Shown here in pieces: positions 39,773 to 63,555 of a stretch of DNA of 64,000 bases. The stretch lies in assembly GCF_000160575.1 (NCBI RefSeq), contig NZ_GG697128.1, positions 412,750 through 476,749 of the forward strand. Reading direction: 5' to 3'. The stretch is from Weissella paramesenteroides ATCC 33313. GTDB lineage: Bacteria; Bacillota; Bacilli; Lactobacillales; Lactobacillaceae. A program made the position numbers and the translations under genes. The notes beneath the pieces were generated by a model. That model saw only the letters and a list, made by a program, of their open reading frames with translations, did not search any database and had not been told where the DNA came from. The stretch's first letter is position 1; each line of letters opens with the position of its first letter.

Positions 39773-40955
39773 GATATTCATCCCCTATCTGTGACAAGTG
39801 TAATTGTGTTTTAACAGCTTCCTGTAAAGCTTGTAATGTCTGCGCATTTAAAAAATGATCGAGCACATCGACATCCGTAACTTGTTTTAATCCCATCTTC
39901 TGCAATTGTTCACGGGTGAACACATCGCCAATGGTTTCCGACCAATAGCGTTCATCAACTGCTGGTAATGGTAGGTGCTGCTCTTGTGTTTGTGCCTGGA
40001 TTTCATAAATAAAAAACATATCGGTGGTTTGTGCTGCAGCAACAAACTGTGCTAATAGTTGTTGGTTCACAATTGCTGACAATACATTAGGATCCTCAGT
40101 TATCAGATTTAATGAAATTAATTCAAATTCATCCTTCATCGCAAACTGTCCTCGGACATATTGCACAACTGTGCTCAGGTCACGTTCAGTACGTACCTCG
40201 GCTGTTACCCAGGTTATTGGTGCAACCGGAGTAAATGTCGGCACTAATTCATTTCCCTCACTTTCCACCATGTAATATCCCTTAGCACCAGTTTCTGTTT
40301 TATCCAGTCCTTGAATACTACCAGAATACCCGATGAATGGCTTTTTTTGTAAGGTTTCACGTACATGAATATGACCAAGCGCCCAATAATCATAATGTTT
40401 CTGTTGCATCGCTTGCAAATTAAATGGCGCATAGTTTCCTGAACCAACCTCGCCCATAGATCCATGATAAATCCCAATATGCCAATCATCTTGAGTTGAT
40501 TTAATAGGAAATTCAGCAACCTGATCTGTTGTTATATGCCGCTGTGTATATGAAAAGCCTGAAATGGCTACAGACTCATGATTTTTTGTCTGCATGTGGT
40601 ATGTTGTCACGTCTTTTGGGAATAATGTGACATTTTTAGGAAATGTGGGTACCCGTTGCCAATCAAGAACGTAGTCATGGTTACCAAAGCCCACATAGAC
40701 CGGAATATTTTCCGTTGCTAATCGCTCTAGCTCCCTGACTAAATCTAATTGTGCACGTGCATCAGGAGTAGTTGTATCGAACAAATCGCCAGCCAATACA
40801 ACGAAATCTACCGCCGCAGTGATGGCATCATCCACTAATCGATGGACTGCCGTTTCAGTTGCAGCTTGTAACTGATCGGTTAACCAATCTGGTGTCATTG
40901 ATAGACCACCAAATGGATTGCCAAGATGCAAATCACCAGCATGAATAAACTTCAT
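39762..40955 (-). CDS. yhaO: SbcD-like metallophosphoesterase YhaO
   Basis: A 397-residue protein with the Mre11/SbcD calcineurin-like domain: IHAGDLHLG, VVLAGDLFD, GFGNHD, GIYHGS and ALGHIHVRE. It is the nuclease partner of YhaN, whose start it overlaps by 11 bases. Upstream of it lies a deletion-type copy of the dispersed repeat, inside its likely leader. Confidence 0.93.
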   Translation of the reverse strand: MKFIHAGDLHLGNPFGGLSMTPDWLTDQLQAATETAVHRLVDDAITAAVDFVVLAGDLFDTTTPDARAQLDLVRELERLATENIPVYVGFGNHDYVLDWQRVPTFPKNVTLFPKDVTTYHMQTKNHESVAISGFSYTQRHITTDQVAEFPIKSTQDDWHIGIYHGSMGEVGSGNYAPFNLQAMQQKHYDYWALGHIHVRETLQKKPFIGYSGSIQGLDKTETGAKGYYMVESEGNELVPTFTPVAPITWVTAEVRTERDLSTVVQYVRGQFAMKDEFELISLNLITEDPNVLSAIVNQQLLAQFVAAAQTTDMFFIYEIQAQTQEQHLPLPAVDERYWSETIGDVFTREQLQKMGLKQVTDVDVLDHFLNAQTLQALQEAVKTQLHLSQIGDEYHVD

Positions 40956-40979
40956 TTTTCTAACCCCTTTTTTGTTTTA

Positions 40980-41013
40980 TAAACGCGTTCCAAAACGACT
41001 TTTGTCTCGCTCT
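40980..41013 (-). repeat. dispersed palindromic repeat, internally deleted copy
   Basis: 34 bases that join the outer ends of the full repeat: AAACGCGTTCCAAAA continues into CGACTTTTGTCTCGCTCT. The inner ~95 bases are absent, with a CAAAA word at the joint. It is 25 bases before the yhaO start and in the same orientation as the full copy at 41136-41274. The remainder of the 321-base gap holds that full copy and the terminator. Confidence 0.75.
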
Positions 41014-41044
41014 ATCAATTTCATTATATTGGAGATTGTCTATA

Positions 41045-41078
41045 AAAAAAAGAGTGGCGCGTTGCGACACTCTTTTTT
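41045..41078 (-). terminator. terminator after the YlbF/YheA-family gene
   Basis: AAAAAGAGTG-CGC pairs with GCG-CACTCTTTTT around GTT, one mismatch. It follows the full repeat. Confidence 0.9.
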
Positions 41079-41135
41079 GAATTTGGTAGATTGATACCTA
41101 CTAAAATTATCTTGATTATAAGCTTATAATTTTTA

Positions 41136-41274
41136 TAGCATAAACGCGTTCCAAAAGTCTGAAGCCTTAATGTAACGAAATTTACGACATTCTTGTCCTT
41201 CGCTTTGCTACGGCCAAAAATGACGAAAATAACGTTACATACCAGCTTCAAAACAACTTTTGTCTCGCTCTCTC
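41136..41274 (-). repeat. dispersed palindromic repeat, full copy B
   Basis: About 137 bases shared, 126 identical and without gaps, with the copy at 44449-44585. It begins 2 bases behind the stop codon at 41277. On the minus strand it starts GAGAGCGAGACAAAAG and ends GGAACGCGTTTATGCTA. The two halves pair (CAAAAGT/ACTTTTG, GAAGC/GCTTC, TGTAACG/CGTTACA, CG-CATT/AATG-CG) around a central block near GGCCGTAGCAAA. Confidence 0.85.
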
Positions 41275-41276
41275 AC

Positions 41277-41621
41277 TTAGTTTTGACCGTACAACTCCGC
41301 AATTGGCTTTGTAATAATGTCATTGATTTCCATCAACAATTGGTTCAAACCTTTTTCAGCTTCAAGCATCTTCTTTAGAGAATCATACTTTTCCATCTCA
41401 TTGGCAACTTCTTGCCAAGCTTTGATTTGATCTTCTGCTGGTTCATTACCAGATTGAACTGCTTGGTTGATTTGCGTTTGTGCTTGTTGGAAACGAGCAA
41501 AGATAGCTTTTGCTTCTGGCTCACCCTCAACAGCCGCAATGGCATCACGCAAGGTCTTGTATTGTGCTGTTTCACGTAAATTTTCAGCAACTGCATTAAC
41601 ATTATCGTAAATATTAATCAT
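41277..41621 (-). CDS. yheA: YlbF/YmcA family protein (YheA-like)
   Basis: A 114-residue all-helical cytoplasmic protein. The family pattern is LRETAQYKTLRDAIAAVEGEP near the start, then FARFQQAQTQIN and an acidic/Gln-rich second half. YlbF/YmcA proteins control competence, biofilm and RNA decay in Bacillus; the YheA branch, often by yhaO, is less known. It sits directly upstream of yhaO but is separated by a terminator and two copies of the dispersed repeat. Confidence 0.88.
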   Translation of the reverse strand: MINIYDNVNAVAENLRETAQYKTLRDAIAAVEGEPEAKAIFARFQQAQTQINQAVQSGNEPAEDQIKAWQEVANEMEKYDSLKKMLEAEKGLNQLLMEINDIITKPIAELYGQN

Positions 41622-41673
41622 AAATATATATTCCCCATCCCTTTTAATTATTCCATTATCTCATATTTTATTA

Positions 41674-43866
41674 TCATTGTGGTAATAATGATTGAATTCC
41701 GGACCAAGCTTTTTTCGCACCATCTTTGACATTACTCCAAGCACTGGAAGCACCATTTTTAATATCATCACCAATACCAGAAATATTATTGGCAATACCA
41801 TTTTTCTTATTTGAAGCAGCATCCTCAGTAGCCGACAACTTTGCACGGACACTTTTCACACTAAATTTCGTCTGTGCCGTATTCGGCAGTACTTGTTCAA
41901 GTGTTGTCTTCATCAATGGTCCAGCCGTCTGTGACAAATAAGCTGAAATCGTATGACTCGCATCCGTTTCATCATAACCAGTCCATGTTGTCACAACGAC
42001 GTCTGGTGTATAGGCAATGGCCCATGAATCAGTCGCGTTGTCACTGGTTGAGTTAGTTCCCGAAACTTCAGTCGTTCCGGTCTTACCGGCAACATCATAG
42101 CCCGTTGGATCAGCTGCAACCCCGGTTCCATGAGTGTATACGCCAAGCATCATTGAGGTCATTTCATTAGCAACACGCTTCGACCATAGTCGCGTATGCT
42201 TTTCTTTGGCTTGGGCAATTGTCTTACCTGAAGCATCAACAATTTTTGTAATGAAATGACTACTACTCATCTCTCCACCATTTGCAAAGCTTGTGTAAGC
42301 TTGCGTCAATTGTAACGGTGTCACACCCTTTTTCAGACCACCAATAGCAAGTGCTAAATTCTTATCAGATTTTGTTAATGGCAAACCTGCCTTAACCGCA
42401 GCATTATAACCTGCATTCACACCCATTTGATCAAGTAACCAAACGGCTGGAATATTGTAAGAATTTTCCAACGCCTTGTACATTGGTATTTTCTCACTAG
42501 TGTAATTACCATAGTTTGATGGTGAATAACCATTCGTTCCAAAACTCATCGTACTATTCTTTAGTTCAGAGTCATACGAGAAACCACGCGATAATGATGG
42601 CCCATAATCAACAATCGGTTTGATCGTTGATCCTGGTGAACGATATGACTGTGTTGCACGATTAAAGCCTCTAAATACATGATCTCCACGACCACCAATA
42701 ATTGCCCGTACACCACCAGTTTTTGCGTCCATTACTACCGAAGCTGCTTGTGAACCTTCACCGATTGGATTCAAGGTCGCATCAGCATAATCATTTTGTA
42801 AATTAGTTTGATCCTTTTGATTCAAAGTTGTATAAATCTTATACCCATCATCCAAAATATCTTGCTCTTTCAAGCCATATTTACTCATAGCCTCATTAAT
42901 GACTGAATCAAAATAATACGGATAATTGTAATTTGAATTATCAACTTCATGGTTCGTTGCCCCTAAGGCAAGTTTTGCATTGTAATCGGCTTGTGCTTGT
43001 GTCAAATACTTTGTTGCCACCATATTTTGTAGCACTTGGTCACGACGTTGCTTAGCGGCATCTTTATAGGTTAGTGGATCATAACCATTTGGTGATTGTA
43101 ACATACCAATTAACATAGCACTTTGTGAAACTGATAAGTTGGCCGCACTGACACCAAAATATTTCTCAGCGGCATCCTGAATTCCCCAAACACCATGACC
43201 AAAATAAGCATTATTTAAATACATGGCCAAAATATCATGTTTAGAGTATTCTTTTTCAACTTGAATTGACAAAAATAGTTCACGTGCCTTACGAGTAACG
43301 GTTTGATCTTGACTCAAAAAGGCATTTTTCACTAATTGTTGCGTCAAGGTTGACCCACCAACAGACACGCTACTACCACGTAAACGATACCAAATAGTTG
43401 TCAAAACACCACGTGTCATCCCACGAATTGAAAAACCATGTTCCTGATAAAAATGACGATCCTCAGTTGCAATCACCGCATTAACTGCATGTGGTGAAAT
43501 ATCACTGAATTTAACATACGTTCCCTTTTGACCAGACAAACTACCGGCTTTATTACCAGAAACATCATAAATTTCAGTAGTTGACTGAAGACGCTTTTTC
43601 AAATCAGAAACATCTGTCGTTTTGGCCTCAAAAGTTCCTAAAACGCTCACTACCAGAATAATCGATAGGAAAAGCGCAATTAACCATCGATTAATTTGAA
43701 ACCTATGCCAGAACGGACCAAAGGTCTTTCTTATCCATGCATAGAACGGACGGAAAAATCGTTGATGCCATCTAATTAACGGTCCAAAAAATTTTCGTAA
43801 CCAGTTAGTCACCGGTGTCATTTTTTGATGGCACCAATCTTTTAGTCCTTTAAAAAATTCTTTCAT
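41674..43866 (-). CDS. pbp1A: penicillin-binding protein 1A
   Basis: Class A enzyme that makes and cross-links peptidoglycan. 730 residues: cytoplasmic basic start, membrane helix (WLIALFLSIILVVSVLGTF, about 60-78), glycosyltransferase domain with VIATEDRHFYQEHGFS and GGSTLTQQLVKNAFL and KEYSKHDILAMYLNNAYFG, then transpeptidase with active Ser in SPGSTIKP, SYN and KTGTTEV. The start at 43866 is one base after the argR stop and has no strong ribosome binding site, so it depends on argR translation. An unusually long N-terminal basic segment precedes the helix. Confidence 0.95.
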   Translation of the reverse strand: MKEFFKGLKDWCHQKMTPVTNWLRKFFGPLIRWHQRFFRPFYAWIRKTFGPFWHRFQINRWLIALFLSIILVVSVLGTFEAKTTDVSDLKKRLQSTTEIYDVSGNKAGSLSGQKGTYVKFSDISPHAVNAVIATEDRHFYQEHGFSIRGMTRGVLTTIWYRLRGSSVSVGGSTLTQQLVKNAFLSQDQTVTRKARELFLSIQVEKEYSKHDILAMYLNNAYFGHGVWGIQDAAEKYFGVSAANLSVSQSAMLIGMLQSPNGYDPLTYKDAAKQRRDQVLQNMVATKYLTQAQADYNAKLALGATNHEVDNSNYNYPYYFDSVINEAMSKYGLKEQDILDDGYKIYTTLNQKDQTNLQNDYADATLNPIGEGSQAASVVMDAKTGGVRAIIGGRGDHVFRGFNRATQSYRSPGSTIKPIVDYGPSLSRGFSYDSELKNSTMSFGTNGYSPSNYGNYTSEKIPMYKALENSYNIPAVWLLDQMGVNAGYNAAVKAGLPLTKSDKNLALAIGGLKKGVTPLQLTQAYTSFANGGEMSSSHFITKIVDASGKTIAQAKEKHTRLWSKRVANEMTSMMLGVYTHGTGVAADPTGYDVAGKTGTTEVSGTNSTSDNATDSWAIAYTPDVVVTTWTGYDETDASHTISAYLSQTAGPLMKTTLEQVLPNTAQTKFSVKSVRAKLSATEDAASNKKNGIANNISGIGDDIKNGASSAWSNVKDGAKKAWSGIQSLLPQ

Positions 43867-43867
43867 A

Positions 43868-44335
43868 TTATTGCATCCAATTATTAAATTGTTCAACCAA
43901 AGCAACTGCTGCATCAGCTGTTGGCGTTGTGACATATATTGTATTATGACCAGCTAGTGTGCCAATCACGTTAGGCATTTCTGCAGCATCAATCATGGCA
44001 GCTAGCCGATTACCATTTCCCTGTGTTGTTTTTACCACAACCATAAAAGATACTGGGGTAATTTCTACGGCCATATCTGCAAAACCTTGTTCAATTTGAT
44101 TTTTATCACTAACAGTTGTATTAGTTGCATCTGCCATCACTTGATATCTTGATTGACCAGTTGCATCGGGACGACGCACAATCCGCAATTCTTTGATATC
44201 ACGCGATACCGTTGCTTGTGTGACCGCAATCCCTGCATGTTGTAAACGATGCAGAATCTCTTCTTGAGAATCAATCACATTATGTGCCAATATTTCAAGA
44301 ATCATTGCTTGCCGTTCTTGCTTTTTCAAAGCCAT
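43868..44335 (-). CDS. argR: ArgR family arginine repressor
   Basis: A 155-residue hexameric-type regulator. The winged helix holds TQATVSRDIKELRIV. The C-terminal oligomerisation domain has VVVKTTQGNGNRLAAMIDAA and GTLAGHNTIYV. The usual GTIxGDDTI motif is GTLAGHNTI here: both arginine-binding Asp are replaced by His and Asn. It may not sense arginine, or needs a second paralog. It is translationally coupled to pbp1A, an unusual partner. The repeat copy A lies upstream. Confidence 0.92.
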   Translation of the reverse strand: MALKKQERQAMILEILAHNVIDSQEEILHRLQHAGIAVTQATVSRDIKELRIVRRPDATGQSRYQVMADATNTTVSDKNQIEQGFADMAVEITPVSFMVVVKTTQGNGNRLAAMIDAAEMPNVIGTLAGHNTIYVTTPTADAAVALVEQFNNWMQ

Positions 44336-44448
44336 GTTTCATTCCTCTTTTTTACTTAGTCATTATGACTGGTAATCTATCGCCGTCACTTATACTATTT
44401 TATCATAATCGGCTATTTCACTTAACTTTAGCTTATTTTTAGCACAAA

Positions 44449-44585
44449 GAGAGCGAGACAAAAGTCGTTTTGAAGCCGGTGTGTAACGTGATTTTCGTCA
44501 TTTTTGGCCGTAGCAAAACGAAGGACACCCATGGCGTAAATTACGTTACATTGAGGCTTCAGACTTTTGGAACGCGTTTATGCTA
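44449..44585 (+). repeat. dispersed palindromic repeat, full copy A (inverted)
   Basis: 137 bases, 92% identical to copy B but in the other orientation relative to the genes, between the argS terminator and argR. Long stems run across it; for example TGTAACGTGATTT pairs with its complement over 13 positions, one a G-T pair. The 349-base gap between argR and argS contains, in order, the argR leader, this element, an AT-rich spacer and the argS terminator. Confidence 0.85.
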
Positions 44586-44621
44586 TCAAACTTACGGGCT
44601 GATAACTAATACATTTTTAAT

Positions 44622-44655
44622 ATAAAAAGGGTTGGAACAAAAATGTTCCAACCTC
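44622..44655 (-). terminator. terminator after argS
   Basis: GGTTGGAACA and complement around 4 bases, followed on the minus strand by CTTTTTA; 30 bases behind argS. Confidence 0.9.
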
Positions 44656-44684
44656 CTCTTTTGCTAAAATCTTTTAAATTTTAA

Positions 44685-46370
44685 CTACATTTCCTTAGGA
44701 GCTTTTACCCCTAGCAAACGTAGTGATTCTGTCAACACATATGAAACAGCAGTCACTAGTGCTAGACGAGCATTTAGTTGATCATCTTCAACTAAAATCT
44801 TTGAGTTTGCATAGTACTTATTGAAGGCACGCGCCAAATTCAATGAGTATTTAGCAATGACTGATGGTTCACGATCACGCCATGCGCGGCGCACGATATC
44901 ATTAAAGCTTGCCACTAACTTTTCAGTTTCCCAAACTTGTTCGTCATCAATTGACAAATTATTTAAGTCTAGTTCTGGCTTACCAGCCTTGCGCAAAATT
45001 GATTGTGCACGTGCGTTCGTATATTGTACGTATGGACCAGTATCACCTTCAAAACGCACAACTTCTTCCAATTTGAAATCGAAGTTTCCAAGACGCTCAT
45101 TCATCAAGTCATGGAAGACTACCGCACCAGTTCCAACTTCATGGGCAACAACTTCTTTGTTAGCTAGATTTGGATTCTTCTCATCAATTTGAGCAGTTGC
45201 TAACTTAACAGAATCAGCCAAAACATCCTTCAACAAAATAATCCGACCTGAACGGGTTGATAGTTTCTTACCATCAACTGTGATCATACCAAATGGAATA
45301 TGCTCAATGTCATCTGACCATTCGTAGCCCATCTTTTTCAAGACAGCCTTCATTTGCATAAAGTGCTCACGTTGTTCGCCACCAACAACATACAATGACT
45401 TAACGAAATTGTAGTTATTCTTACGGAAAATAGCAGCTGCTAAGTCACGCGTCATGTACAATGTTGCCCCATCTGTACGTTGAATCATGGCGACGTTCAA
45501 GCCTTCATCTTCCAAATCAACAACTTGTGCACCTTGTGATTCAACAAGTAAGTGCTTCTCTTTAAGCGTATCAATAACAGCGTCCATCTTGTCATTATAG
45601 AAGGCTTCACCATTAAATGAATCAAAGTCAATATCTAAGTCATTGTATAATTCCATGAATTCTTTTAGTGATTCTTCACGGAACCATGACCATAGTTCAT
45701 GAGCTTCCTCATCGCCATCTTCCAGCTTTTTAAACCAGGCACGACCTTCGTCATTCAATTCAGGTTGCGTTTCAGCTTCTTTATGGAAACGAACATAATA
45801 TTTCACTAACGTATTGATAGGATCAGCTTTAACTTCTTCTTCTGATCCCCAACGCTTGTAAGCTGACATCAACTTACCAAATTGCGTTCCCCAGTCACCC
45901 AAATGATTAATCTTAATTGGTTGATAACCATTTGCTTTCGCGATTTCAGCTAATGAATTTCCAATAACTGTTGAACGTAAGTGTCCCATTGACATTGGCT
46001 TAGCAATGTTAGGTGATGACATATCAATCGTAATATGACCCGCTTCACCATCAGTATTATGTCCATAATCTGTCTGACGTAGGACTTCTGCTAATGTATC
46101 AGCGCCAAATTGTGCTTGATCCAAAAAGAAATTGACATAGGGTCCTACGGCTTTAACTTCTTTAAAGCCATCGGTAGCAATTTCTGAAACGATATTTGTT
46201 GCAATTTGTTGTGGTGCCATACGACGTGCTTTAGCTAATAAAAATGTTGGAAAAGCGTAGTCACCCATGCTAGCATCCTTGGGCACCTCAATTTTTGAAA
46301 GAATCGTTGCATTATCCAATTCAGGGACGACTGCAGCAATTGTTTCTGCAATTTGATTCTTGTAGTCCAT
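44685..46370 (-). CDS. argS: arginyl-tRNA synthetase
   Basis: Charges tRNA-Arg. 561 residues, the class I enzyme. DMSSPNIAKPMSMGHLRST contains the HIGH-type motif and HLGDWGTQFGKLM follows; the KMSKS position is taken by KKLSTRSG, usual for ArgRS. A DALR-type anticodon-binding domain ends the protein (ANSKILVEDDQLNARLALV). The start overlaps the stop of the DUF2187 gene by one base (TAATG). No T-box leader was seen. Confidence 0.97.
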   Translation of the reverse strand: MDYKNQIAETIAAVVPELDNATILSKIEVPKDASMGDYAFPTFLLAKARRMAPQQIATNIVSEIATDGFKEVKAVGPYVNFFLDQAQFGADTLAEVLRQTDYGHNTDGEAGHITIDMSSPNIAKPMSMGHLRSTVIGNSLAEIAKANGYQPIKINHLGDWGTQFGKLMSAYKRWGSEEEVKADPINTLVKYYVRFHKEAETQPELNDEGRAWFKKLEDGDEEAHELWSWFREESLKEFMELYNDLDIDFDSFNGEAFYNDKMDAVIDTLKEKHLLVESQGAQVVDLEDEGLNVAMIQRTDGATLYMTRDLAAAIFRKNNYNFVKSLYVVGGEQREHFMQMKAVLKKMGYEWSDDIEHIPFGMITVDGKKLSTRSGRIILLKDVLADSVKLATAQIDEKNPNLANKEVVAHEVGTGAVVFHDLMNERLGNFDFKLEEVVRFEGDTGPYVQYTNARAQSILRKAGKPELDLNNLSIDDEQVWETEKLVASFNDIVRRAWRDREPSVIAKYSLNLARAFNKYYANSKILVEDDQLNARLALVTAVSYVLTESLRLLGVKAPKEM

Positions 46371-50398: not shown

Positions 50399-50445
50399 AA
50401 GGGGCAATAATCTACCTATTTGACTGCGGTAGATTATTGCCCCTT
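50399..50445 (-). terminator. 18-bp perfect hairpin after dagK
   Basis: Two arms, AAGGGGCAATAATCTACC and complement, with an 11-base loop. No clean U-run follows on the minus strand. It ends 47 bases behind the dagK stop, with a truncated repeat between. A half-terminator TCTGGGACAAAA lies just downstream at 50369-50380. Confidence 0.7.
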
Positions 50446-50486
50446 AAACGTGTTCCAAAAGACTGAAGCCGATTGTCACACTCTCT
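50446..50486 (-). repeat. dispersed palindromic repeat, truncated copy D
   Basis: Carries the AAACGTGTTCCAAAAGACTGAAGCC end of the element and a degenerate CACTCTCT end; the middle is lost. It lies between the dagK stop (50493) and the 18-bp hairpin. Confidence 0.65.
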
Positions 50487-59612: not shown

Positions 59613-59678
59613 ATTTCACTCTCCATTTCAATGACTTCATTATAACAAAGATTAAAACATAATGAGAACATATAAAAA

Positions 59679-59708
59679 AGGTCGGAACACCAGAAAATGT
59701 TCCAACCT
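59679..59708 (-). terminator. terminator after the DUF4097 gene
   Basis: AGGTCGGAACA and TGTTCCAACCT (one mismatch) with a T-run on the minus side. Same design as the argS terminator. Confidence 0.85.
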
Positions 59709-59750
59709 ATTCAACTAAAAATATATTAATTATATGCTTGTAAGTTTGAC

Positions 59751-59780
59751 AGCATAAACGTGTTTCAAAAGTCTGAAACG
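59751..59780 (-). repeat. dispersed palindromic repeat, half copy F
   Basis: AGCATAAACGTGTTTCAAAAGTC on the plus strand is the terminator-proximal half. The flank GTAAGTTTGA-AGCATAAACG is also shared with copy A. It is 10 bases behind the DUF4097 stop. Confidence 0.65.
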
Positions 59781-63500: not shown

Positions 63501-63555
63501 AAACGTATCAAACTGCGTTACACACTGGCTTCAAAACGATTTTTGTCTCGATCTT
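63501..63555 (-). repeat. dispersed palindromic repeat, truncated copy G
   Basis: Minus strand starts ATCGAGACAAAAATCG and keeps TTTTGAAGCC and TGTGTAACG of the first half, then jumps to ACGTTT. It is 2 bases behind the DUF1456 stop and next to the terminator. Confidence 0.7.

What the first reader, a model, noticed from the sequence alone, without database searches (positions are those of the whole stretch)
41136..44585. A family of ~137-bp palindromic intergenic elements
Copies at 41136-41274 and 44449-44585 are 126/137 identical with no gaps, in opposite orientation. Each folds almost end to end into one long hairpin, with a nearly unchanged central block around GGCCGTAGCAAA. Differences fall partly as wobble changes in stems (GAAGCC to GAAGCT opposite GGCTTC). 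I know no named element with this sequence; it could be a MITE-like or REP-like repeat, or a structured RNA.
Basis: partly seen in the sequence, partly recalled or inferred. Interest (0 to 1): 0.85.

Follow-up and report, generated by a model that had tools for sequence, protein, structure and literature searches.

The report
Dispersed hairpin repeats at gene ends
Many lactic acid bacteria carry several to dozens of copies of a 120-135-letter sequence that folds as a single strand into one long hairpin, often sits right behind the stop codon of unrelated genes and seems to spread, and no match to it was found in the RNA-family library or the open papers searched.

Summary
The two copies belong to a repeat with at least 43 matches in this Weissella genome, 27 near full length. 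A covariance model finds it in 99 of 397 sampled genomes of the family, 19 of 40 genera, and in 15 genomes of other families in an order sample of 295. In a phylum sample of 299 only the window's own genome matches.

Stems covary strongly. One strand folds: the reverse complement of copy 1 as written, in 76 of 77 Weissella copies. On that strand the hairpin often starts at a stop codon. In Weissella a linker and a short terminator hairpin follow, the latter repeated only in the five element-rich genomes. Fourteen of 27 sites are empty in some relative; tandem and mirrored units occur.

No Rfam, plasmid, phage or exact viral match was found, and no reverse transcriptase or Y1 transposase in the five rich genomes. 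Best reading: a non-autonomous, probably mobile, structured 3'-UTR element, not found in the resources searched. Mover and function are unproven.

The parts
41139..41272 (-). hairpin, copy 1, on the strand that folds; starts 4 bases after the stop codon (41277-41279) of the ORF 41277-41621 (Pfam Com_YlbF)
   Evidence: model R1 E 1.9e-39; ORF; Pfam
41100..41138 (-). AT-rich linker of copy 1 (approximate ends)
   Evidence: conserved among copies
41050..41074 (-). terminator-type hairpin next to copy 1; not the usual GGGACA type here (approximate ends, by eye; not reported by the scan)
   Evidence: sequence; the same-site W. fangxianensis copy has the GGGACA type
40978..41014 (-). short derivative: both ends of the hairpin kept, centre lost
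   Evidence: model R1 E 2.8e-6; sequence
44449..44582 (+). hairpin, copy 2, on the strand that folds; antisense to both neighbours, argS (44685-46370, -) and argR (43868-44335, -)
   Evidence: model R1 E 5.6e-37; Pfam
44583..44628 (+). AT-rich linker of copy 2
44629..44654 (.). short bidirectional terminator hairpin, TTGGAACAAAAATGTTCCAA type, behind argS
   Evidence: pattern hit, 0.00 expected in shuffles; terminator scan on both strands
50443..50485 (-). shortened derivative
   Evidence: model R1 E 9.3e-5; 26-base BLAST match
59675..59777 (-). fragment: terminator, linker and the adjoining end of the hairpin
   Evidence: G000:C13:472424-472526, 81% over query bases 1-104; 59751-59777, E 2.2e-5
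63516..63554 (-). fragment: one arm of the hairpin
   Evidence: E 1.8e-6; weak in the model, E 0.093

Best explanation
A family of dispersed, structured gene-end elements of Lactobacillales. SHOWN: (1) each unit is one 120-135-nt hairpin whose stems covary and which is built to fold on one strand; (2) bases at internal loops and at the foot are conserved (nAGAG-YGY-GA at the start, CG...TT bulge, GAAC-RCG-TTT at the end) while stem letters are free; (3) on that strand the hairpin often begins at or just behind a stop codon, and in Weissella it is followed by a ~45-nt linker and a short bidirectional terminator hairpin that is repeated only in the element-rich genomes; (4) occupancy differs between related species, near-identical units sit at unrelated loci, and units occur in tandem and mirrored about the terminator. 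INFERRED: the unit is copied to new gene ends (non-autonomous mobility), using the short terminator hairpin or something like it as landing place or anchor. At the gene end it is transcribed as 3' UTR and folds into a hairpin that, with the terminator, caps the message against 3' exonucleases. The conserved foot, within reach of a ribosome at the stop codon, is a binding site for an unidentified factor.
For: Copies: 43 matches in the genome; 99 of 397 genomes and 19 of 40 genera of the family; 2-72 copies in each of 22 positive genomes searched again; 15 genomes of other families; phylum sample 1 of 299, the window's own. Structure: A3 (50 of the 77 distinct Weissella copies, chosen by hand), 95.7% of cells paired, 29 of 44 pairs changed on both sides, 0 of 500 shuffles as high, slid controls 35-48%; across genera (A4, 106 rows) 94.8% paired, 42 of 44 pairs changed on both sides, covariation 0.797 against at most 0.142 when slid. 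Strand: lower RNA energy on the reverse complement in 76 of 77 Weissella copies; stem cells 161 wobble-type on that strand against 33; consensus energy -50.6 against -15.7; 51 of 51 non-Weissella copies, GU 222 against AC 49. Gene ends: a sense stop codon (open frame of 110 codons or more) within 40 nt before the hairpin in 26 of 51 non-Weissella copies, 24 of them at -3..+10, against 1 of 51 on the other side; 35 of 77 against 2 of 77 in Weissella. Mobility: 14 of 27 sites empty in some relative; tandem units; mirrored units, and opposite sides of a terminator at one site in two species. Terminator hairpin: 44, 16, 19, 13 and 18 strict copies in the five rich genomes, 0-1 in the other 23. Changed pairs in same-site copies mostly still pair, 123 of 190 against 41% expected.
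Against: No mover is known: no Y1 transposase and no reverse transcriptase in the five rich genomes, and no match in the phage or plasmid sets. These two absences are not general: G003, which has hairpins (5 matches), has a Y1 transposase, and G019 (4 matches) has a reverse transcriptase match. G003, G019 and G022 carry hairpins but 0-1 strict terminators. Some empty sites may be losses: at the L017 site G010 and G023 keep what looks like a remnant of the hairpin end, and at the L010 and L016 sites another relative does carry the element. No regular target duplication; leader-like repeats flank about 5 of 27 copies, by eye. In this genome 11 of 27 hairpins are antisense to both neighbours (read with the strand), which does not fit a plain 3'-UTR role; copy 2 is one of them. 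Outside Weissella a terminator was found within 180 nt in only 17 of 51 copies, against 8 of 51 on the other side. About half the copies are not at a stop codon. No transcription data were available. A4 is fitted to the model and contains 5 opposite-strand rows of Weissella copies; the non-Weissella strand test uses copies found by a model of that strand; the same-site pairs are not independent, and some compare different units of arrays.
Confidence: 0.6

Rival explanations
1. A purely selfish element moved as folded single-stranded DNA, in the manner of IS200/IS605 ends or folded attC sites (recalled comparisons), with no role at the gene end. The strand-specific fold is what the moving enzyme reads; gene ends are merely tolerated landing places.
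For: One strand folds (DNA parameters also favour it, 73 against 3 of 77). Foot and internal loops are conserved while stems vary. Tandem units a few bases apart. Patchy occupancy. A Y1 transposase is present in one hairpin-bearing genome, G003.
Against: No Y1 transposase in the five rich Weissella genomes. Start points cluster at stop codons more tightly than tolerance alone would need. Same-site copies seem to keep pairing.
Confidence: 0.25
2. A classical MITE: internal-deletion product of a DDE insertion sequence, moved by its transposase.
For: Small, dispersed, intergenic, imperfectly palindromic, many copies, empty sites.
Against: No regular target duplication; no transposase among the 10 ORFs scanned beside truncated copies; strong strand asymmetry and covariation on one strand are not expected of duplex ends; spread over an order with free stem sequence.
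Confidence: 0.06
3. A family of independent small RNA genes, each with its own promoter and the shared terminator, acting in trans.
For: Order hairpin-linker-terminator on one strand in Weissella; some copies lie antisense to both neighbours.
Against: About half the copies start at a stop codon, leaving little room for a promoter; the promoter scan of 40900-44750 shows no clear excess (15 against 11.9, sd 4.0, in shuffles); stems vary freely, so there is no shared seed.
Confidence: 0.07

Closest known systems
BOX, RUP and SPRITE repeats of streptococci (PMC3049150, passages seen)
   Same: small dispersed intergenic repeats predicted to form stem-loops if transcribed; BOX is modular; over-represented between convergent genes; SPRITE suggested to be co-opted as terminators
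   Different: described there for streptococci; here one hairpin found across many genera of an order, with strand-specific covariation, starting at stop codons, tandem and mirrored about a terminator. BOX sequences were not compared by a tool
REP/BIME with RAYT (titles and abstract starts of PMC2817692 and PMC3733652 in a listing)
   Same: palindromic extragenic repeats in many copies, often clustered
   Different: REPs are 20-40 bp with GTAG/CGTC tags; here 120-135 nt with other conserved ends, and no Y1 transposase in the five rich genomes
Enterobacterial RU-1/RU-2/RU-3 repeats (abstract starts of PMC2759123 and PMC2229807 in listings)
   Same: 103-168-bp dispersed, MITE-like intergenic units
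   Different: other host group; no sequence comparison made
Candidate structured RNAs of Lactobacillales listed in PMC2864571 (asd, L17 downstream element, Lacto-rpoB, Lacto-usp, lactis-plasmid; table passages seen)
   Same: conserved RNA-level structure in the same order; the L17 element by its name lies behind a gene
   Different: no Rfam model matches any copy tested; this one is dispersed, 2-72 copies in the genomes counted
Group IIC introns (recalled)
   Same: known to insert next to terminator hairpins (recalled)
   Different: no reverse transcriptase in the five rich Weissella genomes; no Rfam intron model matched the loci tested

Membership tests
Any Rfam 15 family | score at or above the gathering threshold | tested here: not met
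   window; 40950-44750 up to E 5 (two sub-threshold chance hits elsewhere); 10 distant loci; 3 loci of other families: no match on the element; the one hit is a tRNA elsewhere in L319
MITE | terminal inverted repeats | tested here: inconclusive
   whole unit is an imperfect palindrome, which is not the same as TIRs bound as duplex
MITE | target site duplication | tested here: inconclusive
   empty sites printed: no regular duplication; flanks diverged between species, so short ones could be missed
MITE | partner insertion sequence with the same ends | tested here: inconclusive
   10 of the 11 nearest ORFs listed beside truncated copies were scanned: 9 have non-transposase families, 1 has none; the whole genome was not scanned for IS ends
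REP/BIME with RAYT | Y1 (RAYT-type) transposase in the genome | tested here: not met
   PF01797 in 3 of 28 genus genomes (G003, G005, G017), none of the five element-rich ones; G003 does carry some hairpins
REP/BIME with RAYT | 20-40-bp palindrome with GTAG or CGTC tag | tested here: not met
   unit is about 118-138 nt with other conserved ends, read by eye
Group II intron / retroelement | reverse transcriptase in the genome | tested here: not met
   PF00078 in 3 of 28 genus genomes (G009, G017, G019), none of the five rich ones; G019 does carry some hairpins
Integron attC array | attC core sites with an integron integrase | not tested
   units are tandem a few bases apart, without ORFs between; integrase not searched
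BOX element | boxA/boxB/boxC modules by sequence | not tested
   only passages of the paper seen
Intrinsic terminator | G+C-rich stem directly followed by a T run | tested here: inconclusive
   met by the short hairpin 44629-44654; that scan (stems with loops of 3-8 and a T run) does not report the long hairpins as such

The most novel reading that the evidence does not exclude
A bacterial element of a new kind: a compact RNA (or single strand) that copies itself into gene ends as a folded strand, anchored on short terminator hairpins and reading the stop-codon neighbourhood, and that works there as a translation-termination sensor or 3'-end cap, kept by selection on its fold over an entire bacterial order without any protein of its own.
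Probability: 0.2. Interest if true: 0.92.

Novelty: new variant of a known kind. Interest (0 to 1): 0.75.

Why it matters
It would add a structured family spread over an order, in up to dozens of copies per genome, where no RNA-family model matched. The covariation is strong enough to design tests: break and restore pairing, read occupancy across strains, find the binding factor at the conserved foot. The link to stop codons offers a handle on how 3' ends are set and protected in this order. The missing mover is a concrete open question, because the two enzyme types tested are absent from the five richest Weissella genomes.

Tried and rejected
Rolling-circle plasmid origin or phage sequence: no match in plasmids, phages or viral contigs for an exact 25-base pattern. 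Of two genus g20 copies, one was sought in plasmids and one in phages, without a match.

RAYT/REP and retroelement: rejected for the five rich genomes only.

An insertion sequence with the same ends: ORFs beside truncated copies are of the aldehyde dehydrogenase, LytR-CpsA, SIR2, ECF transporter, ABC transporter, NAD synthase, PAP2, nucleoside deoxyribosyltransferase and IMPDH families, and one is unassigned (10 ORFs).

Terminator hairpin as an independent host feature: first considered, because 22 of 44 strict copies in this genome have neither hairpin nor leader in the match lists (count by hand). Of 19 of these 22 that I read (one search took 19 of them and one leader-only site), about 8 turned out to carry clear leader or hairpin remnants and 9 looked plain, two unclear (by eye). 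The hairpin is repeated only in the five element-rich genomes, so I now count it with the element, though G003, G019 and G022 have long hairpins without it.

Replication-strand bias of the copies, thought of as a test for single-stranded DNA, was not carried out.

Literature: eight answered searches, and passages of three papers (PMC2267715, PMC2864571, PMC3049150). No description of this element was seen in what these showed; most subscription papers and all supplements were out of reach. PMC2267715 lists three stem-loop clusters for Lactobacillus johnsonii that I could not compare.
Full report
CHECK. As DNA, copy 1 folds better than all 200 dinucleotide shuffles. The genome, G000, has 1.98 Mb; its nearest named relatives by the ArgR protein are W. 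thailandensis and W. fangxianensis, 87% each. It holds 43 matches to the 139-base copy, of which 27 cover nearly all of it (40 of 67 candidates were scored, so this is a lower bound). In the genus, 7 of 28 genomes have DNA-level matches, with many copies in G000, G001, G010, G013 and G023; with the covariance model G003 and G022 also match, and G019 has four. No Rfam family matches in the window at the gathering score, nor on the element at E 5.

ANATOMY. Extending the flanks shows that the conserved unit is longer than the hairpin. As the copy-1 DNA is written, a short terminator hairpin (GTTGGGACA...TGTTCCAAC type) comes first in most copies, then an AT-rich stretch of about 40 bases, then the long hairpin. 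Short derivatives keep both ends and lose the centre (window 40978-41014; L030; L058). Units also stand in tandem a few bases apart and mirrored about the terminator. At one intergenic site G000 has the hairpin on one side of the terminator, G010 has it on the other side, and G023 has none (L016, L226, L225).

WHICH STRAND. The copies were gathered by a profile search: 104 candidates, of which 89 passed the score limit that drops opposite-strand echoes, and 77 remained after near-duplicates were removed. In these 77 the reverse complement of copy 1 as written has the lower RNA folding energy in 76 (mean -55.9 against -36.7 kcal/mol). In hand-chosen stem columns there are 2304 Watson-Crick cells, 33 G-T and 161 A-C as written, so on the other strand the wobble pairs are 161 against 33. 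The consensus of 50 copies folds at -50.6 kcal/mol on that strand and -15.7 on the other. I conclude that the element works as a single strand, and on that strand it reads hairpin, linker, terminator. Copy 1 is so read on the minus strand, copy 2 on the plus strand. DNA energies point the same way (73 against 3 of 77), so the test does not separate RNA from single-stranded DNA.

COVARIATION. For the 44-pair hairpin, 50 distinct Weissella copies (chosen by hand from the 77) pair in 95.7% of cells and 29 of 44 pairs have changes on both sides. No shuffle of 500 reaches this, and slid structures pair in 35-48%. A covariance model from these 50 copies was searched in 397 genomes of the family: 99 match at E 1e-4, in 19 of 40 genera. 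A second search of 22 of the matching genomes gives 2 to 72 copies each. In the order sample 25 of 295 genomes match, 15 of them outside the family. In the phylum sample, drawn evenly over 215 genera, only G000 matches of 299, which shows that the model does not simply pick up any hairpin. The names of family and order are recalled; the tool gives ranks only. Reading 55 copies from 18 genera, chosen by hand from the 106 hits, shows one pattern: nAGAG-YGY-GA, stem, CG and a bulge that mostly holds TT, stem, internal loop, long stem and variable apex, back down, GAAC-RCG-TTT. In 90 non-Weissella rows 17 of 42 unpaired but only 14 of 80 paired columns are conserved at 75% or more. Across genera 42 of 44 pairs have changes on both sides and the covariation score is 0.797 against at most 0.142 for slid structures; that alignment is fitted to the model, leans towards it, and includes 5 opposite-strand rows of Weissella copies. 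The 51 non-Weissella copies all fold better on the same strand, GU 222 against AC 49; they were found by a model of that strand, which favours this.

PLACE. In those 51 copies a stop codon of an open frame of at least 110 codons lies within 40 nt before the hairpin, on the same strand, in 26; 24 of these are between -3 and +10, and in the 8 at -3 the TAG of nAGAG is the stop codon itself. On the other side the count is 1 of 51. In Weissella it is 35 of 77 against 2 of 77, and in 46 of 77 a stop codon of the opposite strand lies 33-156 nt beyond the hairpin, in most of these 69 nt or more, that is, behind the terminator. In G000 as first oriented, 11 of 27 copies are ++, 6 --, 9 +- and 1 -+ (L017, whose downstream ORF call is doubtful). 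On the folding strand this means that 15 follow a sense gene and 11 are antisense to both neighbours. The upstream genes have no evident common theme (read by eye; not scanned). Outside Weissella the linker start CTA(T/G) follows in 15 of 51 (control 1), but a terminator within 180 nt in only 17 of 51 (control 8).

MOBILITY. Flanks of 25 copies were sought in three relatives, and the argR region gave the two window sites. For 14 of 27 copies (L001-L004, L007, L009, L010, L013-L017, L020, L026) at least one relative has the flanking genes joined without the hairpin (judged from the printed junctions). A fifteenth, L008, was dropped because the upstream flank did not align within 868 bases. Not every empty site need be ancestral: at the L017 site G010 and G023 keep what looks like a hairpin-end remnant, and at the L010 and L016 sites another relative carries the element. 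Seven copies (L002, L003, L004, L005, L011, L015, L019) share a nearly identical leader; six of these also share the terminator, with unrelated sequence outside. Leader-like repeats on the far side occur in about 5 of 27, so there is no regular target duplication. Copy 1 is older: it is at the same site in W. thailandensis and W. fangxianensis, while copy 2 is absent there. The strict terminator pattern occurs 44, 16, 19, 13 and 18 times in G000, G001, G010, G013 and G023 and 0-1 times in the other 23 genus genomes, so it goes with richness in the hairpin; G003, G019 and G022 have a few hairpins without it. In 19 of 21 same-site comparisons kept for the test, 123 of 190 changed pairs still pair against 41% under shuffling. 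These are not independent, and some compare different units of arrays, so I treat this as suggestive of selection in place. No Y1 transposase and no reverse transcriptase is found in the five rich genomes, but G003 has the former and G019 the latter.

VERDICT. The family and its strand-specific fold are as certain as sequence can make them. That it spreads is likely. That it acts as the 3' end of messages is the best but not the only reading: copy 2 and 10 other G000 copies lie antisense, and a single-stranded DNA element remains the main rival. What is new, within Rfam 15 and eight searches of open-access papers, is the family itself, its range, and the tendency to sit at stop codons with a conserved foot. 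I file it as a new variant of the dispersed-palindrome kind (BOX, RUP, REP), not as a member of any of them.

Noticed in passing
L321 985-1711; window 41277-43935: A genome of another family has tandem copies of the hairpin between a penicillin-binding-protein ORF and a short ORF that looks like a YlbF protein (both by eye), the same gene neighbourhood as window copy 1.
   Followed up: no
L239, L244, L261 (genus g20); L243 (genus g3): Four distant copies sit directly behind what look like short-chain dehydrogenase genes (C-terminus GGMRFH or GGTYNG, by eye). L242 and L294, of two genera, both follow a similar helicase-like ORF (by eye).
   Followed up: partly
   Followed up: partly
L004 locus (G000:C12:583723-586859): Two full copies and one fragment within about 2.2 kb.
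   Followed up: no
L236 1498-1634: A genus g22 copy so symmetric that it matches the model on both strands (120.7 and 84.9 bits).
   Followed up: no
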